Under the pieces are notes generated by a model, which was not told the origin of the DNA, ran no database searches, and worked only from the letters and a program-made list of their open reading frames with translations. DNA of 64,000 bases from Pontederia crassipes (lineage: Eukaryota; Streptophyta; Magnoliopsida; Commelinales; Pontederiaceae), in NCBI GenBank assembly GCA_030549335.1, contig CM060196.1:71198139-71262138 (forward strand), read 5' to 3'. Of the stretch, positions 1-61,839 are shown piece by piece. Numbering within the stretch: position 1 is the stretch's first letter; the number at the start of each line of letters is the position of its first letter. The translations under genes and the position numbers were made by a program.

Positions 1-779
1 TGTATATCTTAAATATATATTATTATATATGTAATTTAATTAATAATTATTATATTTTATATAATAATATTAATTTTTATTTTATGATTAAATCAGGAAA
101 ATTGAGAATTTTTTTATTTTTCTCTCGATTTAATAGGGATCGAGTCCGAGATTTTGCAAATCAGAAACAAACCGGGGCAGGTCCTAGACTCGGATTTGAG
201 CGCCCCAACCTTTTTTATTTAAAACTAACAACTTTTTTATAAATAATTTCACATAAATAATTTTCATATTTTCAAACATTAAGTGCAACATCTGGTTTTA
301 TTATCCTGAAACTTATTTGATTTTTCTTCTTACATCTTATACTTTTTCCTCTCTGGAAATAATTTATCTTTTTCTTAAAAAACTTAAAATACAGAAGAAA
401 ACTCTTAGATCATAAATTACCCTTCACTAAAAATATCTTATTAATCCTATTTGTTTTATTCATTTCCATTAATCTCAATGACTCTTTAAACTATATTTTT
501 TTTAGAAATTCATTATTATTAGTTAATGATCTGAAACAAAGGTTAACACTAACTTTTTTTTTATAATTTATGGATTCTCACATAGTTCCTTAATTAATTA
601 GTTAATTGAATAGGGATGCTAATTTATAAGTGCATGCAAAATTTTAATTAATTAATGTCATTTTTAATTTTATATGATGTAATTTATTAACTTAAATTTT
701 ATTTATTAATAGTCTATTTTTTTATAGTTTGATTCCATTTTTATTTTATTGTTATGCAAGTGAAAAGTACGTCGATCAT
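1..779. other. AT-rich intergenic DNA, nothing recognised
   Basis: Strongly AT-rich sequence with homopolymer runs and TTAATTAA-like motifs. I see no open reading frame of note, no RNA gene and no clear repeat ends. Confidence 0.6.
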
Positions 780-2127
780 GCCTAGATTTATTTACTCATA
801 CGAACAAATATTTTCGGTGCTCACGAAGATAGCGAGCAGAATGAATCATATAAGTCATGGTGTGATTGTTAACAATGTTGCCTGATTTAGAGTGAGAGAG
901 GTCAGATACGAGATTCAAGTTTGGGCGTTATAGGGTAGCGAGCAATTTGAAAGCTCGGGTCAGGCACTGAAATGTAGCGACTGGACTTAAGTCCGTGCGG
1001 TGTATAAATAAAATAGAGTTAGACATACGCTCCTTCAGTGAGAGTCTCCACCGTAGTACTTATGTTTAGTATCAAGTATGCAAAGTCGACCTAGAGAGAA
1101 ATGATGAGTTGATTAGTTTGATGGTTATCATGGTGTGAGTCTCTGGCTGTCCTTAGACTCTTGATTATGTCTTAAGGAAAGGAATTAGTGATTCCTACTT
1201 TAGCGTGGTACTCAAAGGTGAAAAGTAAAGTAGTCTATCGAGCTACATCTAGGAAAGCAGTTATTTCACTACTAAGAGACATGAGAGCGAGAGAAAGAAC
1301 TATTATGAGCTGCATTAAGCTTTCACATACAATTGACCAACTATTTTTAAAATAGTTATGTGAAAGATAGTTATCGCGGAGCAAGACATACATTGTCTTA
1401 GCTATGCTGCAAGAAAAATCTAGGGCATAACAAGATACATTATTTGAGCATTCATTGGCTCATGCGTGAGCTATCATGAATCCCTAACGGGCATGACATG
1501 CTTTAGAGATAGTTGAGCGATTGAACCTTAATATGTATCTTTCTAGCTCTTATAAAAAATGTGCTTGTACTCGTGGGTCGCACGACACGTTTACCAATTC
1601 TGGACGAATGAAAGTGCAACGCCCAATGCAAACAAATGAGAGATTGAAGGGCAAATGCCCTTTTGGGCTACACAGTGGACTGCGTGCGTGCCTGCATGGC
1701 CCACTCGGACAGAAATGCACGGATCACGTGTGCATATAGCGCGCGGATCCTGCGCGATCACGCAGGCACGTCACGTCACGCAGGCACTACACGGATCGCG
1801 TGCACGAGGTTCGCGCAGATCCTGTCTGTTGACGTGCCCAGAGCGCGCACGTCTGTACGATCTCACGTGATGTGTTCTACCTAACTTCTCGTCCAAGTCT
1901 TCCTCTCATATAAAAGGAGACCCATAGGATATCCCAAACACACTTTCGAAAGGTTCTTCCAGAGACACTTGTATTGTGGCAAAGAGTTCCGTTCCCTGAG
2001 GTTTAGTTTTCGATCCCGATGCGCAAGTACATTTGTCAAGAGTTCATGAAAAAGTTCCGTCGATCCGTTTTCGTTGCAAAAAATATTTCGCAACCTCTAA
2101 AATTTATATTTATTATAAATTCCAACA
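780..2127 (+). mobile_element. LTR-like segment of a retroelement fossil (uncertain)
   Basis: Base composition changes here from AT-rich to mixed, with a GC-rich, CpG-rich patch at about 1,660-1,880. A TATA-like CATATAAAAGG lies at about 1,905-1,915. The segment runs to ATTCCAACA at 2,127, the kind of end seen in plant LTRs that start TGTTGGAA. I could not find the matching left end, a primer-binding site or coding remains, so this may be the right part of an old LTR. The left limit is a guess from composition. Confidence 0.3.
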
Positions 2128-2703
2128 CTCTCTCCCCCACATCGAGCCAAGTGAAATCCGATCGTCCGATGGAAACGGTAAAAAAATTGGGAGCAGGTGC
2201 GCCCAACACTCAAATTAAATCCTTGAAATAAACTTTGCCGAGCGCAAACACATATAGACCACTTATACTAAATCCAAATCAATATTTTTTTTTATTCTAT
2301 TAGCATGTATTATTAGGTGTTTTCGTTTTTCTCTTCTAAATTATAAAATTTTCCGACTTACCCTTAAACTATTCAAATATTCATTAATTTCTCTTAAACT
2401 AATTAGTTTATTAAGATAATATTGACTATACATAATTTATTCTATTATCAAGTCCCTTGATTACTATTTTTGGAGATAGAACCCACCTCAACGCGATCGG
2501 ACGAAAGAAAAAAAAAACTGGTCCGGATGGAGGATGACGTCATAATCAGTGGGCCCTCGTCCTTGGAAAAAAGATCGAGCAGGCGGTTTCGCCGGCGCAA
2601 CCGACTTGCCTATGCATGCCCAGGGATAAGCATGTTACTAATGCCCCCGACTCTATCACGAAATTACCAACAGTATATCTTCCTCCTCTGGAAAGCGCGT
2701 ACA

Positions 2704-2713
2704 CCTATAAAGG
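2704..2713 (+). promoter_or_regulatory. TATA-like box upstream of the VPS13-like gene
   Basis: CTATAAAGG lies about 390 bases before the chorein-domain start codon at 3,097, at the change from AT-rich DNA to a GC-richer leader. A TATA box here would place transcription start near 2,735 and give a leader of about 360 bases holding several upstream ATGs. Position and motif fit a promoter; no transcript evidence is available. Confidence 0.4.
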
Positions 2714-5700
2714 CTTAAGCCGCTGTTCCCATTTCCTCGCTGTGCCATTCCCTCTGCCCTCACACTTCACTGTGTTCATGTATTGCGTTCCCAGTCCCAT
2801 TCTCGTAAATTAGTCGAATCGAGTCCGATGAATTCTCCCGCCGCATACTCGTTCCAGCTTCCAAATTCCCGGCGGTATGGGTATATATATATATTTGCGA
2901 AGTCCTGGAGCGACGAGTCGTGCTCTCCAAGAATCCCGAGAAGACGTCTCCGTCCCGGTTGAACGCTGCATACGACGGCCGGAGGCGAGCGTCGTGGTCG
3001 ACAAGGACATCGAGCGTGGCCGCCGGCGCGATCTCTTCTTCCCGCCTTCGTCTATCGCCGGAGCTCCGCTGGCTGGTGCCGGCGTCGGAGGAGAAGATGC
3101 TGGAAGGCAACGTCGCCTTCTTGCTCCAGAAGTACTTCGGAAACTACGTCCGAGGCGTCAACAAGGAGGCTCTCAAGATTAGCGTATGGAACGGTAACTG
3201 CGGATTCTTGCTATTTCTTCTCGCCTCGCCCCTTTCCTGATGCTGCTTAGTTTGCCGTGTGCATCATGGCGCGAGCGATCGACGTTGAGCAACTACTTTG
3301 ATAGCGGTTTTGGAAGCTGAGGGCTATAGAGAAGTGTTTATGTCGATTTCTAGTCGAATTATAACTGTTAAATCAAGTTTTCGAGATATGGGCATTTGTT
3401 TTATGGTACTAGTGTCATACTTGGCATTCTTGATTGTATTCGAGGCATCGGGATTGCTATGCTCAAACCACATTGTTGGTTTCTATGATTTGGGCTGCTG
3501 TTCAATTAGGTCGGGAGGCCTTGCAGTAATTCAGGTTGAGGTAAAGACACCATGTCGAATTCTCTCCAGAAAACTTGGGAACGACCTAAAGGTGAAATGT
3601 AAGTCAGCTGATGGAATTTCTTTTGAAGGTTGTGTTGTACCTTGCTTAGCTCATCCAGGGTAGTATTATTATTTGGCTGTGCCGGCATGGTATGCAGCTG
3701 GAAGTTCTAAATGAATGAGACAAGTGAATTTAGATAAATAATGCATAATTACGATACACTTATTTATTATGTAGCTGTGTTGTTATCCTTAATGAATGCA
3801 CGAGAAATTGACTGATGGGTATATCTAAATGTCCCTGTTACTGACATATTTGAGAACTTCCTCAAAACAATAGGTTTTTATTTTTTTGGTGTAAAACAGA
3901 ACATTATGTTTCGATTGTTATCCAGTTGTGCTTCACATCACAGAAATTCAGCTTTTCATATAGCTGAACTTTGAATATGTGGACATGGTATTTCAAGTTC
4001 CGGATAAAAGTTAAGCTGTTACATGGATCCTTGAACTGGTTTCATGCATGTAATCTGGATACATGCCAGTGAGCTTGTATACTATGTTTCTTTGCTGGTG
4101 AGAGATGGAATATTTCTGTTTCTTTACCTTCAGGTGCCTCTCCTTTGGCACCCTCGTCGTTTTGCTTTTGGTTTCCCATACTGGTACATTTCTTGGCAAT
4201 ACAATCACATTATGGATGAATGAGAAAGTATTCTTTTTCGTCTTAAGCAAAAAATCATGACATATATGTGGTACACCACAATCATGCTTTTCTGTTCTCT
4301 TATCATCAACCAAAAAGCTTGAGATTGATAATGCAAGCCTTGAACTGACAAATAACGAGTTTTCCTTTTGGGAGTTATAACAATACTGGAATTGATTCTG
4401 TTGGAACTTTGGGACACTAACATAGGATTAGTTGGTAGAAAACACAGGAAATGGATTTGCATCAATGAGGTATCACAGGCTATCGATCAATGTTTCATGA
4501 ACTCTTGTCTAGTAAAACCCACGATGCTTTGAAATGTTTTTTGTTTAGTATCAACTGCTCCGTTTCTTAAGGTTTGGTGTCTGTACTTTTCTTTAAAAAA
4601 ATTCTATACTTTCTAGAATATGTGCTCCTTGTCCATTTACAGCCATTTCTTATTCGTTATGATGATGTGCAGGTGATGTAGAATTAACAAACGTGCAATT
4701 GAAACCAGAGGCGCTTAATGCCTTGAACTTGCCTGTGAAAGTCAAGGCAGGGTTCCTGGGATCTGTGAGGCTTAAGGTTTAAATATTTTTTAGAACATTA
4801 TATTGGTGAAATACTTGTCTTGAGTTCCTTAAAATGTGTCAAAGGAATTGCCTCTTTGCCCTGAAGATATTTGTAATATGATTTTAGAGTTGCAAAGGAT
4901 TTAAAACTAGCTTGTTGGATTTTTCCACCAAATTAACAAGCTTTGAAGAACGATATTATTAAAAATGCCTCTTCTTAGTGAAAAGGAACATGTTCAGTGG
5001 TCTTTTAATTGTGGTTTTGGATTTTGATCATAGTCCTAACAAAGATTGGTTAAAATTTGTGCTTACTGGAATTTTTTATATAATTTTTGGTTGTTTGGTA
5101 TGAAAATATGATTTATGCTTAGCCAATGATAGACTTAGTAGCACCAAGGGGTTTTTACGGTACTATCTTTCTCTAGAGTTATTGGTTCAGAGTGACTGTA
5201 ATATGGGAATGGGAAGAAGAGTTATGTAGCATGCACAGTACAGAAGACAACAGAGATGATCCAAACTGGCACCTATGTAGACAATTTATGAAGTTCACAA
5301 GATCTAAATGAAAACTGTAGATCATTGTTCAGTTTCCAGAACATTTTAAGTGTTGTGGTTCCATGTCCGGTTTTATAGTTAAGGACTTAATGCTGAAATT
5401 CTGGGCCGCCGAATGAGTCTTCCTCTTGTCTTGGGTTGGTTCTTGGCCCAAAAATAATCTTGGTTGATCCCTAGACATCACGTTGGTTGGGTCTGGAAGC
5501 ATTCCTCTTGAGCCCTGTCGTATAACTTGATTAGCCTTGTTAGTCCTTTCTGGGTTGTGTAGGCCAATCCTTAGGTGTTTTGTCTTCTCCTTCTTGAGCC
5601 GAGATAGCCTTGGCCCAATATGTTGTTGCTTGAATTTTTCTGCTCTATTGGAATTTGCCATTTCATCGAGTCTAGATCCTTCTGAATGATCGAAACTAGT

Positions 5701-6830
5701 TAGCCCTTGAATTAGGGGTTAAAAAAAAGGGGTTATAAGTTGAAGTGTCAGTTGAAAACCTATTTAGAAGATGATTGAATGTTGCACAAGGACATGAGTA
5801 AACTTAAATCTATCTTATTTTAGTAATTTGATTTAGGCCTTCAAAATGATGGTTGTTTTTGCTCATGCTTTATCACTCTTGATTGTTCTTTCAGGTTCCA
5901 TGGAGCAGGTTGGGCCAAGAACCTGTTCTCGTTTATCTTGATCGTATTTTCATATTAGCAGAGCCAGCAACACAAGTTCAGGGATGTAGTGAAGATGCTA
6001 TACAAGAAGCAAAGAAGAGCAGAGTGAAGGTTTTCCATTATATTCTTTGTAATCACATTTGACTGTCACATTGATATGCTAACACATTCTCCTTTTTTTT
6101 AATTGTGTAGGAATTGGAATTGAAACTTTTGGAGAGCCAACAACAGCTTAAATCTGAGATGGTGCTTGACATTACCTATTCCCTTTTCTTTAAATTGCTC
6201 TTTTTTCATCTTGCAGCTGATTTATACTGACTAAGTTTTCATTTTCTTTCCCTATTACATCGTCTTAATAATAGAACTCAGGGTAAAAGAATGATTACAC
6301 TAGTCATCTGTAGATTTTCAGAACTTATTGTCACTAAGTTTAATTTAATCGACTATTGAGGCAGTGAGTTCTAAGGACTATGCATTATTGTTGATTCTAT
6401 ATCTCAATATATGTTCGAAAAAGAGTTTTGATCCATACAATTTTGAGCTTTATTGTTGCAGAAACAAGTATTTGTGCCAGCGGTTTTTTTTTGTCATTTG
6501 TTTCTAATCCTAGTTAATGGGAAATAGCAAAGATCTCATCATAGATGCATTTCTTCTTATTGAAATTGTGTTTAACACTTAATGCTTGGCATTACAATTG
6601 CTTCAAGGAGGATATTGAAGTCCATCTTTGTCATATTGATGTATCATGTAACTACATGCTGCGTACTTTTTTAATATATAGCGGATGACCAGTTAAGCTT
6701 TGGAATCATCCTTCCCTTCCTCAAAACAATCAACAATGCATTGTGTCTTCCTAAAAAAATAGTCTCCTTTGAGTGACTGATAAATCACGAAAATAAACTC
6801 CAATAGGAAGCAGTGTTACAATTAGAAACA

Positions 6831-7204
6831 TGTTAATAATGCCTTGAATCTGAACCCAGTTGGTCCCCCTACATAGTCAGGCGCTTCAGCAGAATTCCCC
6901 TAATTTTTAGGGATATTCTGTATGTGATTCAGATTTGATTTATTTCCTTCTCACAAGATAGGTGTCCTATTTTCAGGAGATTTATTTAGAGTCTCAATCC
7001 GTATGTAATTCCTATCATCTATCAAAGAGAGTGCTCATATAAACTCCTTAGGGGTTTAGACAAAGACTCATTCTTGTAATCATCATTATTTCATAACAAA
7101 GAGAGCCACCGCTTCCCGAAGACGTAACCCAATTTAGGACGAATCTCGTTAATCTTCGTATTCATCTGTGTTCGTGCGATCCCTCTCTCCCTCTTTTCGT
7201 AACA
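6831..7204 (+). mobile_element. Solo LTR, about 374 bp, in VPS13-like intron 4
   Basis: The segment starts TGTTAATAATG and ends TTTTCGTAACA, so the ends are inverted TGTTA/TAACA. It is flanked on both sides by AAACA (6826-6830 and 7205-7209), a 5-bp target-site duplication. The interior looks like an LTR, with a pyrimidine-rich downstream part. No internal domain is present, so this is a solo LTR left by recombination. The superfamily is unassigned, and the intact ends suggest moderate age. Confidence 0.7.
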
Positions 7205-7723
7205 AAACATATAGTTAAATTACTTTTTCTTTAAACTCTCATTTGACAAAAAATCAGAGTCAGCCACTGAATAGAATTGACCCATGTTTCTTTTTTTTGA
7301 AGAATACATCATGGTTAGGATCATGGATCAACACTATAATTGGTAATCTTAATCTCTCCATTTCAAATATTCACATAAGATATGAAGATGCCGAGAGGTA
7401 AGTGTTCTTATTTCTTGTATATATTCTTTTTCAGTTACTGATTATTTTACAAATACGTTATTAAATGTGTTTTTTGTAGCAATCCTGGGCATCCATTTGC
7501 AGTTGGTCTGATGCTTTCTAAGCTCTCAGCAGTTGCAGTCGATGACTTGGGGAAAGAGACTTTTGTTACCTGTGGTGTTTTAGAGCGCATTCTGAAGGTA
7601 TTTTTTTTAATAATTTTGACAACAAGGTTGTAATAGCCCTATTATTAAGGTTTTGTAAATCATAATATTTAATGTGCCACTCTTATTTCATATTGTTTTT
7701 TAGAGGAACTCTTATTTCATATG

Positions 7724-7741
7724 TTTCTCCATATTCTTCAA
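7724..7741. repeat. Target-site duplication of the LINE (left copy)
   Basis: TTTCTCCATATTCTTCAA is repeated exactly at 10864-10881. The last base or two could also belong to the element tail. Confidence 0.9.
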
Positions 7742-10700
7742 CAACAACAACAACAACAACAAAGCCTTATCCCACTAGGTGGGGTCGGCTACATGGATCA
7801 TACGACGCCATTCCGCTCTATTAGTAACCAAACCTTTCGGTATATTATTCACCAATAGATCTTGCTCTATTAGTTCGCCAAGTGTCCGCCTTGGCCTCCC
7901 TCTCCCTCTTTTAATCGAACTCCAGATTATTTGATCTACTCTTCTTACTGGCGCATCTAATGGTCTTCTCTGAACATGACCAAACCATCTCAAACGATTC
8001 TCTACCATTTTCTTACTAATAGGAGCCATTCCGACTCGTTCACGTATATGATCATTCCTAATCTTATCTAATCTTGTATGACCACACATCCATCTCAACA
8101 TCCTCATTTCGGCTACCCCTACTTTACGTTCATGTTGTCCCTTCATAGCCCAACATTCACTGCCATATAACACTGCTGGCCTTATAGCAGTACGATAGAA
8201 TTTTCCTTTAACTTTATTGGGTATTTTTCTATCACAAAGAACTCCAGTGGCTTTCCTCCACTTACACCAACCAGCTTGAATTCTATGATTAACATCGTCA
8301 TCAATCTCACCATCTTGTCATATAATTGATCCTAAATATTTAAACTGTCACTTGAGGAATTATATCCTCCCCTAGCCTAACTTTCAAATCGTCTCTAAGT
8401 TGTTTATTTGTGAAATTGCTATGCATATATTCTGTTTTATTCCTACTTAAACGAAAACCCTTTGACTCCAACGTATTTCTCCATATTTCCAATTTTGTAT
8501 TAATCTCTTCTCTTGAATCCGCTAAAAGTACTATATCATCCGCAAATAGCATGCACTTAGGTACCTCCTCTGTGATACTCTCGGTTATAGCATCGATAAC
8601 TAAGTTAAATAGATACGGGCTTAAAGCTGATCCTTGATGTAGGTCAATTCCTATAGGAAATTCATTTGTCTCACCTCCGGGTGTCCTAACCCTAGTCAAT
8701 GCCCCATCGTACATATCTTGTATTACCTTAATGTAGGCAACACTCACCCTCTTCTTTTGCAAGGCTTTCCAAAGTACATCCCTTGGTACCCGATCATACG
8801 CCTTCTCTAAGTCAATGAAAGCCATATGTAAGTCTCTTCTCCTACTTCGATACTTCTCCATCATCCCCCTTAGTAAATAAATCGCCTCTGTAGTGGATCT
8901 TCCTGGCATGAACCCAAATTGTCTCTCAGAAATACTAGTCTCCATTCTCAATCTATGCTCAATCACTTTTTCCCATAATTTCATTGTGTGACTCATAAGT
9001 TTAATCCCTCTATAATTTGCACAATTCTGAATATCCCCTTTATTTTTGTAAATAGGAACTAATGTACTTAATCTCCAATCATCAGGCATCTTTTTCGACC
9101 GTAAAATCTCATTAAATAGTTTACATAACCACAACACACATTTTTCTCCTAAACATTTCCAAACCAATCATCCGGTCCAACGGCTTTACCATTCTCCATT
9201 TTCTTAAGAGCTTCGCTAACCTCCGAGACTCTAATTCTACGATAAAATGACCTATTAAGCTCACATTCACTAACTGTCAAGTCCTCCAAATCACAACGGG
9301 AACCTTCACATCCATCATTAAATAGCTTATAGAAATACTCTTCCCATCTGTTCTTAATATCTCCTTCAGTAACTAAAACCTTACCAACTTCATTTTTTAT
9401 ACATCTTACTTGATCCAAATCTCTCGACTCCTTCTCTTTATTCCTTGCAATCTTGTAAATCCTTTGTTCACCAGCCTTTGTCCCTAACTCCTTATAAAAC
9501 CCCTCATATGCTTTAGCACGAGCATCACTAACTGCCTTCTTAGCCTCCCTTTTCGCCAAACGATACTTTTCCCAATTGTCAGAACTATTGTCCAAGTGTA
9601 TCGCCTTGAAACAATTCTTCTTATTACGCACCTTTTCTTGGACCTCCTCATTCCACCACCAAGTCTCCTTATCTCGTGGTCCAAAACCTTTTGATTCTCC
9701 TAAAATGACTTTAGCAACCATTTCAACCTTTTTTGCCACATTCTTCCACATGATACTAGCATCTCCTTCTAACTCCCACACACTTTCCTCTAATAACTTA
9801 CTTCTAAAAGTCTCTCGCTTCTCCCCCTTTAACTGCCACCACTTGATCTTTCGATCAAAAACTGTTCGGGATTTTGGTTTTATACATTTCATTTGCATAT
9901 CAAGAACTAACAATCTATGTTGTGTAGTCACCCCATGCCCAGGAATTACTTTGCAATTAGTACAGCGTCTTTTATCAGTATTTCTTGTCAAGAAAAAATC
10001 GATTTGAGACCTATGAGTTCCACTTTTGTATGTGATTAAATGTTCATCTCTCTTCCTAAAACAAGTGTTGATAATCTTAAGGTCGTATGCTAAAGAAAAA
10101 TCAATAATAGTTTGTCCTTCCTCATTCAACTCCCCAAAACCAAAACCACCATGAACCCTTGCATGTGGTCCTGCCTCTTTACCAACACGTCCATTAAGAT
10201 CTCCCCCAATATAAACTTTCTCGGTTGTTGGTATACTTTCAATCAAACCCTCCATATCTGCCCAAAACTTCTCCTTGAGATGTGATTCTGCTCCTACTTG
10301 GGGTGCATATGCATTAATAATGTTCATAGTCTCCTTTCCAACAATTACTTTCACGGATATGATTCGATCCTCAATCCTTTTAACTCCCACAACATTCTTC
10401 CTCCATTCTGCATCCGCGATAATACCAACACCATTCCTTCCATTTACCTTACCTGTGTACCAAAGTTTGGAACCATTTAACCTAATCTCTTTACTTCCCT
10501 CTCCTACCCATCTAGTTTCTTGCAAGCATAAGATACTAATCTTACGCTGGTCCATTACTTGTGCCACCTCGAGGCGCTTCCCATTCAACGTCCCAATGTT
10601 CCAAGAACCTAATCTGACCTTAGTCTCATGAACTAACTTCTTTAACCGCCTCCGTCCATTAGAGTGCGGTAGCCCTTGCTCATTTAACACTGCATTCAGG

Positions 10701-10863
10701 CGAGGATGCAGCGGCTCTTGCTCTCTTATCACTGTACCCGAGCTGTACAGCGCGTTACTTACGGATAACGACCTAGCATTAACACAATATATTCGTTGAT
10801 CCATGTTCATAAGATTCGACATGATTTTATGTTGGCTGTCGGGGCCTAACACAACCCTCCTCC
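7742..10863 (-). mobile_element. RTE-type non-LTR retrotransposon (LINE), nearly full length, in VPS13-like intron 6
   Basis: The element runs antisense to the host gene. Its 5' end is at 10863 and its 3' end is a (TTG)n tail at 7742-7760. From 5' to 3' on the minus strand it encodes an APE-type endonuclease (VRLGSWNIGTLNGKRLEV, LQETRW, IINAYAPQVG, GGDLNGRVG; about 10,640-9,900). A reverse transcriptase follows (YRGIKLMSHTMKLWEKVIE, GFMPGRST, AFIDLEKAYDRVPR, FADD; about 9,160-8,400). The C-terminal domain contains CGHTRLDKIRN and RLRWFGHVQRR (about 8,170-7,775). The single ORF is broken about twice: a shift near 9,160 just after GKAVGPDD, and a break between about 8,340 and 8,175. The 5' end starts GGAGGAGGGTTGTG, about 13 bases inside the 5' end of the related copy at 13,352, so very little is missing. 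The exact 18-bp duplication points to a young insertion. Confidence 0.92.
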
Positions 10864-10881
10864 TTTCTCCATATTCTTCAA
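10864..10881. repeat. Target-site duplication of the LINE (right copy)
   Basis: Exact match to 7724-7741, placed just outside the 5' end of the element. Confidence 0.9.
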
Positions 10882-11433
10882 TTCTTCTATAATTCCTTCG
10901 AAAAAGTGTAATGTGGGGAGGAAACACGAAAACAAGAATACCTTTTGCAATATAGATGTCTGGGAAAGTGGTCCAATAGTTCAACTTGAAACCGATTACA
11001 TGCATTGCCGCCACCTGCATCATTTGTGGAATCATGGATGAGGACATGTCAACTGTGGGGTGCTGCATCCCTGATGATGTTTGGTGACTGGTGGTTGTCA
11101 TTTCAATCGACCCTTGTCCAATAACAACCTTTTGGCATATGTATAAGACCTGTTGTGTGCAATGGACTTTCCAATTAATACCACTGGCAACGTCATTGAT
11201 GGTTCTTGGGTCATTTGGCAGCAACACAACATGATCTTTCTTGGGAAGGGAGAGATGTTGTGTATTTCCTACTCGAGCGGAGGAACTGTCTCTGAATTAT
11301 TTTTTTATTCTTGTTATGGTTTGGATTTGTTTACTCCTATGCATATTTCCATGTTTTCCTTATTTTTTTGGAAATTCTCGAACATGTTGTTTGGAAGCCT
11401 ATCGCTGAACCTTCTCTGATGCCCTTCTTTCAG
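10882..11433 (+). other. Remainder of VPS13-like intron 6
   Basis: Intron sequence right of the LINE target site, up to the acceptor before exon 7. It is open in one minus-strand frame that continues into the LINE by chance. I recognise no domain in it, though its mixed composition leaves room for an older insertion. Confidence 0.5.
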
Positions 11434-13351
11434 TCCGTGAAACTGGAAAATCTTGCTATTTATTTTGATTCTGATATTTGTCCTTGGTCTGTTGACAAAG
11501 CATAGGAGCAATTGCTTCCTCCAGAGTGGAACAAGGTGCATGCTTCTTTCATATAAATTTCTTTGTTTCTGGAGCATGACTGATATTTAAATGCCCTTCA
11601 GATCTTTAAAATGGGGATCAAGGATCATGCAAAATCTAATCTTGATATGGAAGAACACAGTTATGTCTTGGAACCAGTGACTGGAACTGTGGATGGTATT
11701 GGTGCCAGCTTTGCAAGATGTTTAGAGATCTTAAATAACAAGGCTATAGCACAAAGGACAAGGAATCCACGTGCCATTCTTTCAGATGGTGTTATTAGAG
11801 AATATAATGAAAGGCAAGCAATGGGACAGGTAACACCTGGCAGCTAATCTATTATTCCAAGTGCAAAACCTTGGGATACATATTGGAGAGAAATAGATAA
11901 AAAAATTTGCGACACACATTGGAGAGAGAGATAAGAAAATTTAAAAAGGAATAGTTCTTTTTTTAAGTTTCTGAAGGTTCAACTTCTCATTTATATTCTA
12001 TGATCCTTTATTAGTATTCAGACTGAAAGATTCTTTAAATATTTTAACTGAAAAACTCTTTTAAAAATGGAAAAGCTGAAAGAAAAGTGTTATCAAAGTA
12101 CTGTAGCATGCATGAGAAAGACTTCGGTTATTTTAATTAATAGACCTTGTATTTCTTTTTAATTTATTTATTTTTTTGAATGAATTTTTTAAGGAGTGAG
12201 CTGTTTAAATTTATTGATTGTCTAGTTGTGAGATTTTTTTTATCATGTATGATTTCTTTTGTTTAATCTGAGAAGATATTTGGTTCTATTGTCTGTTTGC
12301 AGATGGTACTTTACCTAGCAGAAGCTAGCAGACGTCATGGTTGTACTGATCTGTTCAAAGAACCTTCAAAGTATGCATGGTCTGACTATTATGAAGATCA
12401 TTTTATTGTGCACAATCAAAGGATTGTCCGAATATCAAATAAAGGTGTCATGCTGCTTAAGGTTAGAAATGATGGTTACCTTGTCTCATTATGATTCCCT
12501 AACTTAATCCGCAGTTTGTTTCCCTGTAACAGTGTTTTGCTCCTGATAAGATGGACAAAAGACCGTGCAAGATACTCTGGGATGTACCTTGGGATGAACT
12601 TCTGGCTTTAGAGTTGGCAAAAGCTGGATATGAGAAACCATCTCATTTGATCATACATCTTAAGAATTTCAGGATATCAGAGAACTTTGTACGGTTCATT
12701 AAATGCAAGATTGATGAAGAGGAAGAACCTCAGGCTGTCATCATAACTTCTGTCATTCGAAAGATATGGAAAACATACCAAGCGGGCCATAAGGTGCTTG
12801 TTTTAAAGGTAGGTGCTCCCTGCGCTGATACTGTATCTGGTCTTCTGAAGGTGCTGCTTCTAAAATTGATATATAATTAATGTATAGGTTCCTTCAAGCC
12901 AACGATACGTACGGTTCACATATGATGGAATCGTGGAAGACCTGTCACATATCCATAATAAACCTTTTCTGCAACCAAGAGGAAGTCCAACATTTGGGGA
13001 AAACAGATTCATAAAGCATAGTCTCAACTTCATAAAGATATGGAGTAGTGAAAGAGAACAAAGAAGTCGATGCACTTTGTTATCGAAACAGGTAGAAAGA
13101 TACCATATGCATTCATTACATTCTTTCAGAACGAAATGATGTTTGACCAGATCTATGTATTGCACTGTTATAGGTAGTTGGTGATGGTACAGTATGCAGC
13201 ATCTGGAGGCCCCTTTGTCCTGATGGGTAATTTTCAACTTCAACCTTTTGTTCCAAGCCTTTTAAAAAAAACTTTTTTTATTTTACGCAACTTGTGGCAT
13301 AGGAAAGAACTTTTTTTGACATGCATTTTAGTATTCTTTGAGCATAGATCT

Positions 13352-13551
13352 AACTCCGCCTATGTTTTATAACCAGTCCCAAGCCCGGATAAAGGAGGAA
13401 GGTTGTGTTAGGCCTCGACAGCCAGCGTAAAACCCTGTCAAATCTCATGAACATGGATCAACGAATATATTTGGTTACTAATAAAGCGGAATGACGTCGT
13501 ATGATCCATGTAGCCGACCCTACCTAGTGGGATAAGGCTTTGTTGTTGTTG
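13352..13551 (+). mobile_element. Non-autonomous derivative of the RTE LINE (both ends only), in VPS13-like intron 12
   Basis: The first part (about 13,381-13,475: CCCGGATAAAGGAGG, GGTTGTGTTAGGC, ATGAACATGGATCAACG) matches the 5' end of the LINE at 10,863-10,780 in reverse complement. The second part (about 13,475-13,551: TTACTAATAAAGCGG, ATGTAGCCGACCC, GATAAGGCTTTG and a (TTG)n tail) matches its 3' end. The whole coding region is absent. The junction falls in a short shared TTTGGTTACT-like stretch. Flanking TTGAGCATAGATCT (13338-13351) and TTGAGTATAGATCT (13552-13565) look like a 14-bp target duplication with one change. It is SINE-sized but built only of LINE ends. It lies in inverse orientation to the full LINE in the same gene. 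Confidence 0.85.
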
Positions 13552-14402
13552 TTGAGTATAGATCTGTCACTCGGAGACCAAATGCATATTTTCTCCTGAT
13601 ATCTAGCGCCTCAGTCTGTTAAGAATGAGCCATTGAACTGTTAACCTCATGTTCATCTTCTGCTCCTAATCAAGGTCTTCCCTCAAAATTATCTTGTTTC
13701 ACATTACTTAATAAAACATGTGTTTGACAGGTATGTTTCTGTTGGAGACATTGCCCATGTAGGCTCGCATTCACCGCATGCTGCTTCTATCTACTGCAAC
13801 TCGGATGGGAACTTTGCACTCCCTCTGGGTTATGACCTGGTATGTAGTTCTAAATTTTTTGTTCGTCCCAGCTTTTAACTTATGCACTCATGTAACCATC
13901 TGCACTGTTGAATATGTTTGCAATGAATTTTCTTGACAATCCACATTAACAAAATTAGCAGTACTTTCCATACACAGCAGTACTTTATGTTCTTTCATTA
14001 TGAACATTTGCATACCTGTGACATCGATAATGAAGAAGCCAATTTTGTATGTATGCGTGCAGGTTTGGAGGAACTGCGTTGAGGACTACGCTGCTCCTCT
14101 AACGATCTGGTTACCAAGAGCACCTGATGGATATGTTGCACTTGGATGTGTAGCAGTACCTGATTACGAGGAACCCCAGTTGGATTCTGCATTTTGCGCG
14201 AAGGAAGGGATGACCGAAGAGACCCTATTTGAGGAGCAAATGGTGTGGACCGCCCCAGATTCTTACCCCTGGGCATGCTACATATATCAAGTCAAAAGCG
14301 AAGCGCTGCAGTTTATTGCATTGAGGCAACCAAAAGAAGAGCTTGAATGGAAAGTGAAGCGAGTTTTTTAGCATACATTCTCACATGAATATGAAGCTTC
14401 AG

Positions 14403-14490
14403 GGAATCCTTGATTATGTTTGAGTAGTAGGCCTCCTTTTTTAATAGGAATCCTTGACTATGTTTGAGTAGTAGGCCTCCTTGTTTGAAT
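14403..14490. repeat. Tandem duplication, 44-bp unit x2
   Basis: Units at 14403-14446 and 14447-14490 share GGAATCCTTGA, TATGTTTGAGTAGTAGGCCTC and differ at a few bases. They lie just past the stop of the VPS13-like gene, in its 3' untranslated region. The repeat is probably slippage or a local duplication. Confidence 0.8.
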
Positions 14491-15029
14491 AGCTATGTTT
14501 GAAAGTTGAAGCTTGTGAATTGTTAATCTGATCAAAATCTAAAGAATTATGCTAACACAGATTGATAGAATTAGACTGTCTTTTTTTCCTTCTATTTGTC
14601 TTTTTTTCTGTCATATTTTTTTGTCACGCATTATTCTTTTGTATTTAAACTTCATCCAAACACTCACATTTAATAATAACAAGATTACAAGAACAATTTA
14701 AACGAATAATAAATCCATTAGTTTAATAAACCTTATCCTTTGAATAACAAATTATGAACCAAACAACACTTAAAAGATTACTAGAGATAATTCTTGGGGT
14801 CTTAACTTTTATTTTTGGGAAAAAGCTAAAACTTACATATGTAATTTCTTTATGATGTAGTATTAAGATATATATTATATTATATATTCTTGTCTAAAAC
14901 TTAACTCTATATTCTTGTAACAGAGAATGCATATTTACTGTTTTTTCAAGTTGACTCTTCAAATCCTAAACTTGTACTTCCCAAAATAATTGAAGGAAGT
15001 GAAATTGAACTGGAGTTGACCGCTTGCAG
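14491..15029. other. Spacer between the VPS13-like and beta-amylase remnants
   Basis: AT-rich DNA in which the N-terminal beta-amylase exons would be expected but are not found. A short frame just before the amylase exon (about 14,950-15,026, reading [18 protein letters not shown]) has no family I recognise. Confidence 0.5.
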
Positions 15030-16487
<1,458 letters not shown>

Positions 16488-16830: not shown

Positions 16831-19800
16831 TTAGTTATGATTTGCAACCTTCATGAGCACAAATCTTCTCTTGCCAACAGTGTTTACATTCTCACTTAGT
16901 TTATTGAGGTGAAGCATTCGTCTTTGAGCAGATGCTAAGCCGGAATCTTGCTCCCTTTTGTTATTGGTCTCTGTCCAAGATGGATGATAAGTGTCAACAG
17001 GTTCCACCTGGCCATCCAAATCCTTGTGTTGCATTGCTTTCTTGAGAACTTCTACAACCTCGCTCATCGCTGGACGGTCCTTGGCTTGCTTTGCGAGGCA
17101 ATTATCAGCCAGGGTTGCAATATCCCGAGCAGCCCTCAGGGAATATCTATTTTGAAGTCTAGGATCCATGACCAGGCTGAACCTTTTACTCTCAGCAGGG
17201 AAATGTGTGACCCAATCCAGGAGCTTTTGCTCACCTCTTGGCCGATTTCTGTCCATGGAACGTCTTCCGGTAAGGATCTCATAAAGCACAACTCCGAAAC
17301 TCCACACATCACTTTTCGCTGTGAGATGCCCGCTTTCAATATAGTCTGGTGCAGCATATCCATAAGTCCCCATTACCTGATTAATAAGAATAGTAATGAT
17401 AAGGATAAATAGTTTACAATTATCATAAATAAAAATGGCTATGAATCATTAGTGGACATGTATAACTCAAAATTCTCATGTTAAGCACATTGACAGAGAA
17501 TTGGTCATTCTACAGCATCATAACATGAAGCATTTGATTCATAAATTAGACAGTCTGATTCTAAATTTTGAAAGAGAAAGTAAAACATCATCTAGAACTC
17601 CTCGAAACCAACCTAAAATGGCTTCAGACATATTCTATCTGATTCAAAATCTAACCCAGGAAAATTGGGACTTACTGCAGTTGTGACATGAGTGTCCCCT
17701 GCTGATGGCCCCTGCCTCGCTAATCCAAAGTCAGATAACTTTGGTTTAAACTCCTCATCTAAAAGCACATTTGATGCCTTTAAATCACGATATATCACCT
17801 GCCACAAAAAAATGTAAATGGACGAGGATTGGCATTGAGCAGAAGCAGTACTTGTTCAGATGCAAGTAAACTCACTCATAAATGAATCTATTTCAATCCT
17901 ATTGTTATTTTTCTAGCGGATGATATGAAGACTGGCAAATCTAACGGATACAAGTAGCAATTTACTTTCCAGAAGGTAAGACTGCATTTTCTCTGGAACG
18001 TATTGAGAAGCTAATCACTCAGTGTTTGGAATATTGAAGTATGGTACCCCATTACTTATTCCACTAGTTTGCTATAGAACAAATAGTGGCCTCATTCTCA
18101 CCAGAGAAGTGAAATTTTATCCAATTAAAGTATGTAAATCATGATTTTCATGCAAAATCTAATGGTGAAATGTGAATGACAAGACATACAAGAAGTCTGA
18201 TAAAGGATAGGGTCATAACTATGCCATTAACTATCATGGTTTTTATTCATTCGACATCCTCAAGGATGTACTTGCAGCCACCCACTTACCTTAAAATATA
18301 ACAGACATTGTCGTAAATGCATTAAGCATGCAAACGTGGTTAGTTTAAATATAAAGAAAGTGCTTAAATAAACATACTAAGCCAGCCATGCAGGAAGGCT
18401 TCTCATATCTTGAGTGGAATAGGATTAACAGGAAGTACTGCTGCACCTCAATGAGTAGGGAGCAACAATGATTTCATTTGTTTTTGAAATAGTGTCTTCT
18501 CAGCCTAGTGGTGGTGCTTGCCCATGCTGGGCTTCATGAGATACCAATGTTTGTGGGCAGCAGTAAGTTTAGTCTACAAAACATGTTGTACAAGAGCAGG
18601 AATACAAACCTGAACTTCCAGTCCGCCATGGAGATATGCCAACCCTTCTGCGGCACCCAAGGCAATCTGTAACCTTATTTCCCATGGAATTGGAGGGTAT
18701 GCTCTGCTGAACAAATGATGTTCCAGAGTCTTATTAGGAACAAATTCATAAACTAACAATCTTTGAGGCCCTCGCTCATCATCATCCACAGAACAGTAGC
18801 CAATGAGTTTAACAAGATTTGGGTGCTCAACAACTCCCAGAAACTGAACTTCTGCCAGCCACTGCCTGTGGCCCTAAATAATAGGATATAAGAGTACCGG
18901 TGAGCTACATCAGACGTAAATAAACAAGAGACTTGTGAAAATATTGTAGCTTTGAAGTTTTGACAATTATAAAAGCCCATGAACACATTGTTACAAAGAT
19001 TCCTTCTTTTCACCATAAATGGAGAATCATGATAAATACAAATACCACAAAGGATGCAATTTTCTGTTTTCCCTGGCGATAGTAGCTGTACTAATGTTAG
19101 TTCCACGGGCAAGCTGATGAAAGAGATTGTAGGGTATTTCGATATGTTACATTGTTAACGATTCAAAAGCTCAATATGTCTTGGTTTTCATTAATCTGAT
19201 TTGGGCTGCCTATGTCATCTACTGTAATTTTATATTTCTAGTATAAGGGCTAAGTATTGTGGATATTTCATCACTTTCCAGACCTTTATCTATTATGATT
19301 TGGTAGTCAGAGAATAGTAGGTGACTGAGTATAGCTTTGATTATTTAGCATCTAAAAGAAAGAACAACCAATACAAAGCATGTCATCCAATTTAATGTCT
19401 AAGAGCACAGATTAATAACTAGACCACCAAATGAAAATTAACCATACCAAGTATTTTTAAACAGACACATAAGAAAAACAGAGGATGCACAAACAACTGA
19501 AGAATTATAGAAACGATTTGAAAACAAAGAGCACAATTTACAGAAAGGGAAGGAAGTATGCTTCCTCCATGTCACATACTAGAAACGAAACCAACAAATA
19601 TTATACCACATTGAACTTGTCTACCTCAAACACAAAGCAAGCACACTTGCCATTGAACTTTGCTGGCTAGTTCTTAAATTATATTTATGCACTATCATAG
19701 TGTTAGACAATGAGCAAAATGTGTGCTAAATGATTCAATCAAATCGTAGATTGATCGAATAAATTTAGTCCGTCAATAATCAAATTATTATACAATAATA

Positions 19801-20513
19801 GGTTTAATTGGGGTCATAATTATCTTGTCCCCTCATTGTAACTTCCTTTCCCTCATTTTTCAATGAGGGGACAAGATAATCATGATCCCAATGAAAACTA
19901 TCATTATATAATAATTTGATTATTTGATATCATTGTAAGATCTAGTATGACGGCTGCGCACATAGTCCACCAATCAGGGCAGGCCAGAATTTAAACATAT
20001 TGTTCAAGCTAGTAAAAATTAAGCTTATTGATAACTCCATGTATCATATACAACATGACCATTTAACTATAATTCTTCGACATTTCCAGATGGAAAACCA
20101 AAAGAAAAAGGACTACTGCCTACAAGCATTACCTGTACCCCATTTGGATTAAGCTTCTTGATTGCTACTGCAATGTTATCCCCTTTCCTGTTGATAGATC
20201 TAATGGAACCCTTGTACACATTCCCGAAACCACCTTCCCCTATCTTAAAAAGCCTGCTGAAATCATTGGTAGCATGCCTGAGCTCCCTGAGCTCGAAAAC
20301 ACGCAGGTTCTGCGCCCTCTCCTGGAACAGTTCAGGAATGCTTCGCTGCGAGGCAATGGAGGCAGTAGACTTGCTGGCTTCATTTCCAGTAGCTGACTCC
20401 TCAGATCTGCTTGTGGCCCTAATCGACGTCGGGGAGGCTAAGCCAGGAGTAGGCGCAGACCTCGTCTGCTCTGTGTACTTGCATCTCCTTCTAAAGTAAT
20501 TGAAACAACCCAT
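16831..20513 (-). CDS. Receptor-like cytoplasmic kinase, RLCK VII subfamily (PCRK/PBL type)
   Basis: Four exons on the minus strand: 20133-20513, 18610-18873, 17676-17798 and 16831-17376, all phase 0, giving 437 residues. It starts [10 protein letters not shown], with Gly2 and Cys3 as in membrane-anchored (myristoylated/palmitoylated) RLCK VII kinases. A Ser/Thr-rich stretch follows, then the kinase domain. P-loop [11 protein letters not shown] at 92-102, VAIK lysine at 119, [15 protein letters not shown] hinge region, catalytic YRD at 218-220 (Y-R-D is normal here), DFG at 238-240, and [27 protein letters not shown] and [13 protein letters not shown] are typical of the PCRK1/PCRK2 branch. 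These kinases act below pattern-recognition receptors in immune signalling at the plasma membrane. The usual APE motif reads APD (Asp267), a conservative change. All key catalytic residues are present, so it is probably functional. The exact orthologue is not certain. Confidence 0.93.
19778..19922. mobile_element. Small fold-back element (MITE-like) in kinase intron 1
   Basis: An imperfect palindrome. AATCAAATTATTAT and GATAATTATGA-type arms on the left are mirrored by ATAATAATTTGATT on the right. In the centre, TTATCTTGTCCCCTCATTG faces CAATGAGGGGACAAGATAA almost perfectly. About 145 bases. No coding part and no clear target duplication, so superfamily is unassigned. Confidence 0.75.
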
Positions 20514-21364
20514 GTTTCCTCGTAGGAAGCAAATTTCTTCTTTACAAGGTCATGACAATGTTCTTTACAACAGAAGCAAGAGGAGGTAAACCTAACGATA
20601 AGCAAAATGCACACAGAGTTTTCAGTTGGATTTTGGAAAGGAAAAGACTGAAAGAATGCAGGACTGAAATGTGGAAATTTTGTGCAGGAAACAGAAAAAA
20701 AATGGATTAGTAATAGAAACTCGTATAACAAAAGGGGAAACGCGATTGGAACATCAGAAAGATATATAAACAAAAACAATGGAATATTCAAAACAGGAAC
20801 CAAAAGCGAAACCTCTGAAAAGAGAGAGAATCCAACCCAGGGCAGAAAGAATCAGAAAAAACAAGAAGAAGAAGAAAAAAAGTCAGAATGTAAAAGAACA
20901 AAGAAAGGAATTGACGACAGGCAAAACAAAAGAAGAAAGGAAACCACGATAACACAAATACAAGGAAACAAAGAACAGAAGCAGAGAACTGATGAGAGGA
21001 GACCGGAAAAGTGATAAACAAGTCATTCGAAACAGAACTGCAAAAAAAAAAAACGAAATCAAAACCCAGAAACCTTAAACGACAACAAAAAGAAACCTTT
21101 TGCTCTCCTCGCCAACTTCGTTTTCGAGAGTACGCTCTTTCCGCTGATCACCGATCCCTTCTGATGCAACTGCCAGAACAGCACGAGCAAAGGTCCGGTT
21201 TTTACCTCCCTCTGCTCCACTGGAAAAAAAAACAGAGTCAAAGTCGTCTCCTTGAAGCAAAATTCTGGACCAACAGAGCGAGGGGATGATTGATATTTTG
21301 ATATAGAGGTGATAGTGGGTCGTGGACAGTGGAATTGTGATGGGAATAATGGTTAGGTGGGCTA

Positions 21365-22084: not shown

Positions 22085-23040
22085 AAAAATTACATAAATG
22101 ATTCCTTAATTTTGAATCATTTTTAAATTGATTCTTCAATTTTAATTTATAATTAAAATATTCCTTATTTTTTATTTTCTTGCACGATTAATTTTTTTGA
22201 CTCGTGATAGTGAATTTTTCGATTGTCTTACGTATGTGACTGGCGCGTGAATCGTTTCTCTCACATCTACGTCATTTAAATCATCCTAGTCATTTAACGT
22301 TTCAAACCGAGTAAATTACGTGGATCGTCCCTTAATTTGAGTCGATTTCTAAACAGTTCTCAACTTTAATATTATTTCACGATTCATCCACTTGACCGAT
22401 AAAAAATAATCTTTCGATTATCTTGCTAATGTAACGTAATAAAATATAATAAAAAATTTTAACTAACTGACATCACACAATAAAAAATATTATAAAATTT
22501 TAAAAATGCAGACGAACTGGCAGGGGGTTGCGGCCCCCCTCTCCAAGCTCGTCCACTGGTGAGCTTCACAAGGGGCGCCCTATCATTTTTTATTTTTTTA
22601 TTAATTTTTATAATATTTTATTAATATTATCTTATTTTTATTGTGCCATGTCAATAAGTTAATTTTTTATTATATTTTATTACACCATGTCAGCAAGGTA
22701 ATCGGGAGGTTGTCTCTTACTGGTCAAGTGGATGAATCGTGCAATAATATCAAAGTTAGGATATCGTTTAGAAATCGACTCAAAGTTTGGGGACGATACG
22801 TATAATTTATCCGATTTGCTAGCATTAAATGATGTGGATGACTTAAATGACATGGATGAAAGAAAAATGACTCACATGGCGTCCACGTATGCAAAGCAAT
22901 TGGAAAACTCACTATCACCGGTCAAGAGGACTAATCGTGCAAGAAAATAAAAAAATGAGAGACGTTATTGGTACAAATTGAAGTTGAGGGATCAATTTGA
23001 AAACGATTTAAAGTTGGAAAACTAATCGTGTAATTTACCC
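22085..23040. mobile_element. Long fold-back (TIR) element, about 950 bp
   Basis: The two halves are imperfect inverted copies: AAATTACA near 22087 is mirrored by TGTAATTT at 23029-23036. ACGATTCATCCACTTGACCG near 22,380 is mirrored by GGTCAAGTGGATGAATCGTG near 22,725. The terminal motif recurs inside at about 22,313 (AAATTACGTGGATCGTCCC), so the arms look like nested copies of a shorter unit. The centre (about 22,510-22,600) is GC-rich with its own short hairpin around GGGGGTTGCGGCCCCCC. Non-coding; the short frames inside are not genes. Superfamily is unclear. Confidence 0.75.
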
Positions 23041-60700: not shown

Positions 60701-61433
60701 GATCAGCATTTTCTAAGACGATAAAGCAAATTTCCCAAAGACCAGAATTTGATAAATAAGGTATCATATAAAGACATGATTTTTTAAATTAATAATACAG
60801 AATCTTCTGTAATTTCCATAGCAATGAAGAAAAGAAAGCAAATACAGGAAAGAAAAACACAGCATTTAGAAATCTTAATTGTGCACATGGATTTTGCTAC
60901 TTGTGAATTGAATTAGAAAACCTTTTTTTTTAAAAAAACAATAGTTGAATTTGTTCAAGGTTCCAACAACGAAAGAAAACAGCACATAAATGATTGATAA
61001 TTTCAGTCCAAACAACAGTGGAAGAAAAAAAAAACCCTATTGAGGCAGATTCAAAGAACACACCAGTGAGCATAATGATGGACGACTCAGGGAAGTGGAA
61101 TCGGTTGATGAGGAGGTAACGCATGCACTTGGCGTCGTTGCTGCACCCCTTGAGCTCGTGCCTCGAGAACCGGTACGAGATCCCGACTATCACCGCCCTC
61201 TTCCTCCCGTGCGGCGACGGAGGCGGCCCCCACGGAGCCCCTCCCGCGGGAGACGGCGCCGGAGGTGCGGGATAGTGTGAATTGGAGGACGAGGGAGAGG
61301 AAACGAAAGGCGGGGCCTCGCGGGGGTCTGCGATAAGAGTGACGGCCTGGCAAAGGGCGCACCGGATGGACTTGGCCCCCGGCGGCAGCTGCAGAACCAT
61401 CTGGCAGCCGGAGCAATTCACGAGCATCAACAT
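57755..61433 (-). CDS. Type I metacaspase with LSD1-type zinc finger (AMC1-like)
   Basis: Five exons on the minus strand: 61064-61433, 60103-60433, 58472-58592, 58037-58243 and 57755-57814, in phase, giving 362 residues (AMC1-type proteins have about 365). Metacaspases are Cys proteases that cleave after Arg or Lys and control plant cell death. The N-terminus has the zinc finger CSGCQMVLQLPPG...RCALCQAV and a Pro-rich linker. The catalytic domain follows: RKRAVIVGISYRFSRHELKG, the His162 motif FHYSGHGS, DEVDGYDETLCPLDF, and the Cys218 motif IIDACHSGT. The C-terminal part has ISFSGCDDHQTSADTS and GAMTFCFIQALEQGHG, ending FDVYMKPFAL. I chose the ATG at 61433, directly before the LVNCSGC motif. 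An in-frame ATG at 61538 would add 35 residues of no known motif. All key residues are present and it looks functional. Confidence 0.95.
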
Positions 61434-61839
61434 ATTCTCGGATGACCGGCCGGATGGGAGGTCCCCCGCGAGGTGGCGGCGGGGAGCGGAGCCGAACGGG
61501 AGAGAGAGACGAAAAGAAACCTCAGGCCAACTTTGCATTCGGTAATTTAGTTGCAGATTTGACGTATTTAACCCCGTTCACTTTTACTTGGAGGCGGTTT
61601 TGGATGATGGCAAATTTGATAATCCTGTCCGAGATCAAGGGTACTTATATTTTTCGGAGTTATTAGGATGGTGGCGCGATGTTTCGCGGCAGTCTAACCG
61701 TTGAATCGAAGACCAACCGAATCTGACGGTGGTACGAATTCTTCCCTCTTAAGTTTTGGACCATCAATAAAAAAAATGACGTCGATAATTTAACTCCAGA
61801 ATCAATTTTGCGATATTATTTTCGCAAACCTCTCCTACC
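61434..61839. other. Upstream region of the metacaspase
   Basis: Should contain the promoter and 5' leader on the minus strand. GC-rich close to the gene, then AT-rich. No definite TATA box assigned. Confidence 0.4.

What the first reader, a model, noticed from the sequence alone, without database searches (positions are those of the whole stretch)
11434..11829. In-frame fusion inside one exon makes a miniature VPS13
Seen: exon 8 moves from an N-terminal VPS13 motif (EEHSYVLEPVTG) to a far C-terminal one (TVDGIGASFARCLE) with the frame and splice sites kept. Known: plant VPS13 proteins are several thousand residues and move lipid along a long groove. Inference: a large deletion or partial duplicate fused two exons, leaving a chorein head and a membrane-binding tail without the groove. 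If made into protein, it could occupy VPS13 contact sites without moving lipid.
Basis: partly seen in the sequence, partly recalled or inferred. Interest (0 to 1): 0.75.

Follow-up and report, generated by a model that had tools for sequence, protein, structure and literature searches.

The report
Decaying mini-copy of plant VPS13 gene
The fused head-and-tail VPS13 gene is really in the sequence, but a stop codon just before the join means it most likely makes no fusion protein, so it looks like an ordinary decaying gene copy.

Summary
The join is real. A 14-exon VPS13-like gene (3097-14371, +) with GT-AG at 13 of 13 introns passes, inside one exon at about 11685/11686, from a VPS13 N-terminus (VPS13_N, profile 1-262 of 1317) to a far C-terminus (VPS13_C plus a Vps62/beta-tripod stretch). 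Two details are wrong. Region 11434-11829 is two exons with a 66-bp intron; and inside it, in frame and upstream of the join, lies a TAG at 11503-11505 (codon 224). Under ordinary splicing and decoding the product is a 223-residue head; the tail is not translated and the mRNA should be an NMD target (inferred). Only skipping exon 7 (102 nt, phase 0) would leave an open 645-residue fusion. No ATG2_C or VAB match was found, so the tail is incomplete too. The next gene, a beta-amylase, lacks its first ~121 residues. Arabidopsis VPS13M1 (At4g17140) and BAM3 (At4g17090) have close locus numbers, suggesting a duplicated block losing its genes. Best reading: a lightly damaged, internally deleted, non-processed pseudogene. 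A working mini-VPS13 is unlikely but not excluded; parent gene and RNA could not be examined (no genome held).

The parts
3097..3193 (+). exon 1, start codon MLEG (chorein N-terminus)
   Evidence: VPS13_N profile from position 1
4673..4776 (+). exon 2
   Evidence: AG acceptor and GT donor, phase fits
5895..6029 (+). exon 3
6111..6161 (+). exon 4
7303..7397 (+). exon 5
7480..7597 (+). exon 6
7742..10863 (-). LINE (endonuclease and reverse transcriptase in different frames) inserted in intron 6, flanked by an 18-bp direct repeat (7724-7741 and 10864-10881) read as target-site duplication
   Evidence: Exo_endo_phos, RVT_1; CTCCATATTCTTCAA at 7727 and 10867
11434..11535 (+). exon 7, 102 nt, phase 0 at both ends; carries the in-frame stop
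11503..11505 (+). in-frame TAG, codon 224 of 680
11602..11829 (+). exon 8, the fusion exon; join at about 11685/11686
   Evidence: head side matches fungal Vps13 to its last residue
12303..12461 (+). exon 9 (within the VPS13_C match)
12533..12808 (+). exon 10 (partly within the VPS13_C match)
12888..13091 (+). exon 11
13174..13226 (+). exon 12
13731..13839 (+). exon 13 (Vps62/beta-tripod stretch begins)
14063..14371 (+). exon 14, rest of the Vps62/beta-tripod stretch, final stop
15030..16487 (+). neighbouring beta-amylase fragment (start approximate) without its first part: GH14 profile 85-398 of 402

Best explanation
A duplicated VPS13M1-type gene lost its many middle exons in one internal deletion whose ends fell inside two coding exons, which were joined in frame. 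The copy is now decaying: a stop in exon 7 ends translation at residue 223, before the join, so a transcript, if made, should go to nonsense-mediated decay or give only a chorein head. Shown: gene model, join, stop, domains not matched, truncated beta-amylase next door. Inferred: that the middle was lost by deletion rather than never copied, the NMD fate, that the parent was VPS13M1, and the origin from a duplicated VPS13M1-BAM3 block (whole-genome or segmental duplication followed by gene loss).
For: One internal stop, 11503-11505, in a model with 13 of 13 introns GT-AG. Head: VPS13_N 1-262 of 1317; tail: VPS13_C and Vps62; no VAB, VPS13 middle or ATG2_C among the four families listed at E up to 1 (HMMER's filters drop most matches above about 0.1). 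Introns present, so not a retrocopy. Under neutral drift one stop is expected per 19.6-24.1 substitutions, 0.96-1.18% of 2040 nt, depending on transition bias (frameshifts were not modelled), so one stop needs no selection to explain it if the damage is recent. The adjacent beta-amylase lacks its first part. Arabidopsis VPS13M1 is At4g17140 (PMC7613979 passages) and BAM3 is At4g17090 (PMC6394054 passage). The Vps62/beta-tripod stretch after VPS13_C fits what PMC7613979 reports for VPS13M1 only (a beta-tripod in a loop of the C-terminal PH domain). At4g17140 has an exon numbered 60 and reads over 13,000 nt (PMC7430643 passages), against 14 exons here.
Against: Only one small lesion in 680 codons and no broken splice dinucleotide: a recent or polymorphic stop in a gene that was alive until lately is possible, and at 5% neutral divergence two or more stops would be expected with probability 0.92-0.97, so an old duplicate must have been under selection until recently. 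Exon 7 can be skipped in frame, leaving 645 open codons. No parent, RNA or second assembly was examined. In five plants, whole-genome-duplication copies are fewer among pseudogenes than among functional genes and, in most species, show the lowest structural divergence (PMC7935947 passages), against a fractionated block with a large internal loss. The gene-order argument rests on two locus numbers of one distant species. The solved-structure support for the beta-tripod is weak: 6fbm, E 0.018, equal to an unrelated hit, 2jbh, E 0.018.
Confidence: 0.8

Rival explanations
1. A working mini-VPS13: the stop is bypassed (exon 7 skipped, or the TAG is a sequencing error or a rare allele), giving a 645-679 residue protein with a chorein head and a PH/beta-tripod tail that could tether membranes or compete with full-length VPS13 without a long groove.
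For: Only one stop, splice dinucleotides intact; exon 7 is 102 nt, phase 0 on both sides, and its removal leaves an open frame. In another bridge protein, BLTP3A, a 1-336 construct still goes to lysosomes and deletions map vesicle clustering to the C-terminal region (PMC12583604 passages), so ends of such proteins can act apart.
Against: The stop as read precedes the join; exon 7 has AG and GT at its ends, so skipping is not forced. No ATG2_C or VAB match in the tail. One stop is what neutral decay gives at about 1% divergence.
Confidence: 0.08
2. Assembly mis-join: two distant parts of one full VPS13M1 gene were joined by the assembler.
For: The parent kind of gene is long (reads over 13,000 nt in Arabidopsis, PMC7430643 passages), and no reads could be checked here; the window has no N to betray a gap.
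Against: A mis-join inside two coding exons would keep the frame only about one time in three and would not explain the separate in-frame stop or the truncated beta-amylase next door.
Confidence: 0.08
3. Dispersed partial copy: head and tail were copied in and joined as filler in break repair or by a transposon, rather than left by a deletion in a duplicated block.
For: Dispersed pseudogenes in plants are mostly fragmented (PMC7935947 abstract in the passages). LINE sequences sit in two introns.
Against: Head and tail are in natural order and orientation, with introns, start and final stop, and the neighbour is a beta-amylase, as near Arabidopsis VPS13M1 by locus number. No further VPS13 piece was found in 125 of 252 ORFs scanned.
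Confidence: 0.2
4. The locus makes only the 223-residue chorein head, which has an effect of its own.
For: The frame is open up to the stop and the head is colinear with the solved fungal Vps13 N-terminus 6cbc.
Against: A stop in exon 7 of 14 usually triggers nonsense-mediated decay (general knowledge); no expression data.
Confidence: 0.07

Closest known systems
Plant VPS13M1 (Arabidopsis At4g17140)
   Same: Chorein N-terminus, C-terminal VPS13_C followed by a Vps62/beta-tripod stretch (VPS13M1 architecture from PMC7613979 passages)
   Different: No match for most of VPS13_N (positions after 262 of 1317), VAB or ATG2_C; 14 exons against an exon numbered 60 in Arabidopsis; internal stop. No plant VPS13 sequence was held for direct comparison.
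Non-processed (duplicated) plant pseudogenes
   Same: Introns kept, disablement present, partial cover of the parent family (class in PMC7935947, passages)
   Different: The internal loss happens to have kept the frame and both gene ends
Plastid-type beta-amylase (the neighbour)
   Same: Best of 29 solved relatives listed is chloroplastic beta-amylase 1, 8j5d, E 1.7e-142
   Different: Match begins at residue 122 of that chain; the part before is absent

Membership tests
VPS13 (definition in PMC11712023, passages: all four of Chorein_N, VPS13, SHR-BD, VPS13_C) | Chorein N-terminus | tested here: met
   VPS13_N E 2.2e-61, residues 1-263; the head also matches ATG2_CAD (E 2.8e-8), but below that model's cut-off (32.4 of 50 bits)
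VPS13 (definition in PMC11712023, passages: all four of Chorein_N, VPS13, SHR-BD, VPS13_C) | Second VPS13 domain (PF16908 in that paper) | tested here: inconclusive
   Not among the families listed at E up to 1, but the Pfam copy used has a 1317-position VPS13_N and may no longer hold PF16908 as such; only positions 1-262 are covered
VPS13 (definition in PMC11712023, passages: all four of Chorein_N, VPS13, SHR-BD, VPS13_C) | SHR-BD/VAB domain | tested here: not met
   No such family among the four listed at E up to 1
VPS13 (definition in PMC11712023, passages: all four of Chorein_N, VPS13, SHR-BD, VPS13_C) | VPS13_C end | tested here: met
   PF25037, residues 288-395, E 3.3e-10
VPS13 as a lipid bridge (PMC7613979) | Long repeating beta groove (12 RBG domains in most plant homologues, per passages) | tested here: not met
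   VPS13_N cover ends at position 262 of 1317, then the tail follows
VPS13 as a lipid bridge (PMC7613979) | ATG2_C region | tested here: not met
   No ATG2_C family listed at E up to 1; the tail begins 25 residues before the VPS13_C match
Duplicated (non-processed) pseudogene | Introns kept | tested here: met
   13 of 13 introns GT-AG
Duplicated (non-processed) pseudogene | Disabling lesion in the reading frame | tested here: met
   TAG at 11503-11505, codon 224; middle missing
Duplicated (non-processed) pseudogene | Intact parent elsewhere in the genome | not testable with these tools
   No whole genome held
Duplicated (non-processed) pseudogene | Relaxed selection or no stable RNA | not testable with these tools
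   No parent, orthologue or RNA available

The most novel reading that the evidence does not exclude
The gene is alive in spite of the stop: exon 7 is skipped in frame, or the stop is rare in the population, and the plant makes a 645-679 residue groove-less VPS13M1 with a chorein head and a PH/beta-tripod tail that tethers membranes or competes with the full-length bridge: a natural separation of tethering from lipid transfer. That only one lesion is seen in 680 codons leaves room for this.
Probability: 0.07. Interest if true: 0.6.

Novelty: new member of a known kind. Interest (0 to 1): 0.15.

Why it matters
As it stands, it is a tidy example of how a copy of a giant gene can shrink: one join keeps head, tail and frame, then a stop ends it. 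It is a caution that an intact-looking fusion with good splice sites is not evidence of a protein. If the gene were expressed by exon skipping, it would be a natural tool for asking whether the ends of VPS13 alone can hold a contact site without lipid flow.

Tried and rejected
The window's own genome could not be searched for a full VPS13 (none held). Two scans of viral contigs, with part of the tail (4 stretches matched a pattern) and with the head (45 stretches), confirmed no relative. Bacterial and archaeal genome contigs, phages, plasmids and E. coli genomes were not scanned for this plant gene; metagenome contigs allowed no scan. Retrocopy: rejected, introns present.

Missing middle elsewhere in the window: Pfam at E up to 0.01 on 125 of 252 ORFs of 58 residues or more, those lying wholly in stretches outside the recognised genes, plus 20 chosen translations, 4 of them also among the 125: no VPS13 family. 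Shorter ORFs were not scanned. tblastn of the head-and-tail protein on the window gave, besides the exons themselves, one weak hit overlapping exon 10 (31.6%, E 1.9e-5) and six hits of E 2.6 or more. First part of the beta-amylase: no GH14 match among the 14 ORFs scanned in 1-3000; in 14372-14960 no ORF of that length lies wholly inside, so none was scanned there. It could also lie left of the window, if the VPS13-like gene sits in a beta-amylase intron; not testable. RNA families: none at gathering score.

Papers: searches that could have shown a plant mini-VPS13 or a plant VPS13 pseudogene (17 papers listed) showed none that fits by title and start of abstract; of these, passages of four papers were read and one on BLTP3A. 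No paper was read whole. Searches (pseudogenes; BAM3) led to the passages.

Full report
What is there. The window (35% G+C, no N) is plant DNA, judged from its genes. On the + strand at 3097-14371 a 14-exon VPS13-like gene can be read with fitting phases; 13 of 13 introns begin with GT and end with AG. Its 680-codon frame begins MLEGNVAFLLQKYFGNYVRG and has its final stop at 14369-14371.

Why the join is real and not a chance motif. The 262 residues before it match fungal Vps13 end to end (6cbc_A 1-262, E 1e-43), where EHSYVLEPVTG faces EHQFILKPVSG. In Pfam the head matches VPS13_N positions 1-262 of 1317 (E 2.2e-61) and, below the cut-off, ATG2_CAD (E 2.8e-8); the part after the join matches VPS13_C (PF25037, residues 288-395, E 3.3e-10) and Vps62 (two stretches, best 569-646, E 1.7e-13). 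PMC7613979 (passages) explains that Vps62 matches in plant VPS13M1/2 are beta-tripod domains and that a further one lies in a loop of the C-terminal PH domain of VPS13M1 only. In solved structures the tail's best hits are weak: 6fbm, an insecticidal protein (tail residues 269-377, that is 531-639 of the whole, overlapping the Vps62 stretch; E 0.018), an unrelated 2jbh (E 0.018) and 7ar9 (E 0.75). So a VPS13M1-type parent is likely but inferred. Between head and tail no VPS13 middle, VAB or ATG2_C family was listed at E up to 1.

The stated interval 11434-11829 holds exon 7 (11434-11535), a 66-bp intron and exon 8. In exon 7 the frame reads SVKLENLAIYFDSDICPWSVDKA-stop-EQLLPPEWNK: a TAG at 11503-11505, codon 224. 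It lies upstream of the join, so ordinary translation never reaches the fused part. Retaining the 66-bp intron would bring a TAA of its own. Leaving out exon 7 (102 nt, phase 0 at both ends) would give an open frame of 645 residues; whether that happens cannot be seen from DNA.

How it most likely works, or rather fails. Shown: join, stop, domains not matched. Inferred: a duplicated VPS13M1 gene suffered one internal deletion with both ends in coding exons. The Arabidopsis gene At4g17140 has an exon numbered 60 and reads over 13,000 nt (PMC7430643 passages), so about 46 or more exons would be gone if the parent here was alike. A random join of two coding exons keeps the frame about one time in three, and keeps the outer splice sites by construction, so neither is evidence of selection. 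One stop in 2040 nt is what neutral drift gives after about 1% substitution (one stop per 19.6-24.1 substitutions, by transition bias; frameshifts not modelled). The same sum cuts the other way: at 5% neutral divergence two or more stops would be expected with probability 0.92-0.97, so if the duplication is old, the gene must have been under selection until recently. A stop in exon 7 of 14 should send any mRNA to nonsense-mediated decay (general knowledge).

The neighbour. From about 15030 a beta-amylase follows; its best solved relative is chloroplastic beta-amylase 1 (8j5d, E 1.7e-142). The match begins at residue 122 of that chain and at position 85 of 402 of the GH14 profile. About 660 bp separate it from the VPS13-like stop; no ORF of 58 residues or more lies wholly in 14372-14960, and no GH14 match was found in the ORFs scanned elsewhere. 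In Arabidopsis VPS13M1 is At4g17140 and BAM3 is At4g17090 (PMC6394054 passage; PMC7011640 passage); such numbers run in gene order along the chromosome (recalled), so the two are near neighbours. That the fragment here is of BAM3 rather than BAM1 type was not tested. I infer a duplicated VPS13M1-BAM3 block in which both genes are being lost. This is a post hoc argument from two locus numbers in a distant species and needs a gene-order comparison. Against it, PMC7935947 (passages) finds whole-genome-duplication copies under-represented among plant pseudogenes and, in most of its five species, structurally the least diverged.

Transposons. Intron 6 holds a LINE on the - strand at about 7742-10863 with an 18-bp flanking direct repeat; intron 12 holds a 201-bp derivative made of the two ends of the same kind of LINE. 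Neither touches the join.

Verdict. The remaining room for a living mini-VPS13 (exon skipping or a rare stop) I put at 0.07.

Noticed in passing
15030-16487 (+): Beta-amylase (GH14) fragment lacking the part that corresponds to the first 121 residues of 8j5d, about 660 bp after the VPS13-like stop; Arabidopsis VPS13M1 and BAM3 have close locus numbers, which suggests conserved gene order.
   Followed up: partly
7742-10863 (-): About 3.1-kb LINE with endonuclease and reverse transcriptase in different frames and an 18-bp flanking direct repeat, in intron 6.
   Followed up: yes
13353-13553 (+): 201-bp element in intron 12 made of the 5' end (89% identical over 85 bp) and the 3' end (96% over 84 bp) of the same kind of LINE, joined directly, with a TTG-repeat tail and flanking 12-bp repeats alike at 11 of 12 bases: a miniature, internally deleted LINE.
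   Followed up: partly
22108-23015: Sequence that matches its own reverse complement over about 905 bp at 73% identity: a large decayed palindrome, perhaps a foldback or MITE-like element. A smaller one (150 bp, 81%) is at 19775-19924, between kinase exons.
   Followed up: no
16834-20549 (-), 33785-37255 (+), 60018-61577 (-): Protein kinase exons, an open frame of 1157 codons with a MIF4G domain (eIF4G-like), and a caspase-domain gene with an LSD1 zinc finger (metacaspase-like). Not checked exon by exon for lesions.
   Followed up: no
one of 125 ORFs scanned outside the recognised genes; place not determined: Matches to SH3_retrovirus (E 1.1e-9) and RVT_2 (E 1.9e-5), one ORF each: remains of Copia-type elements.
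   Followed up: no
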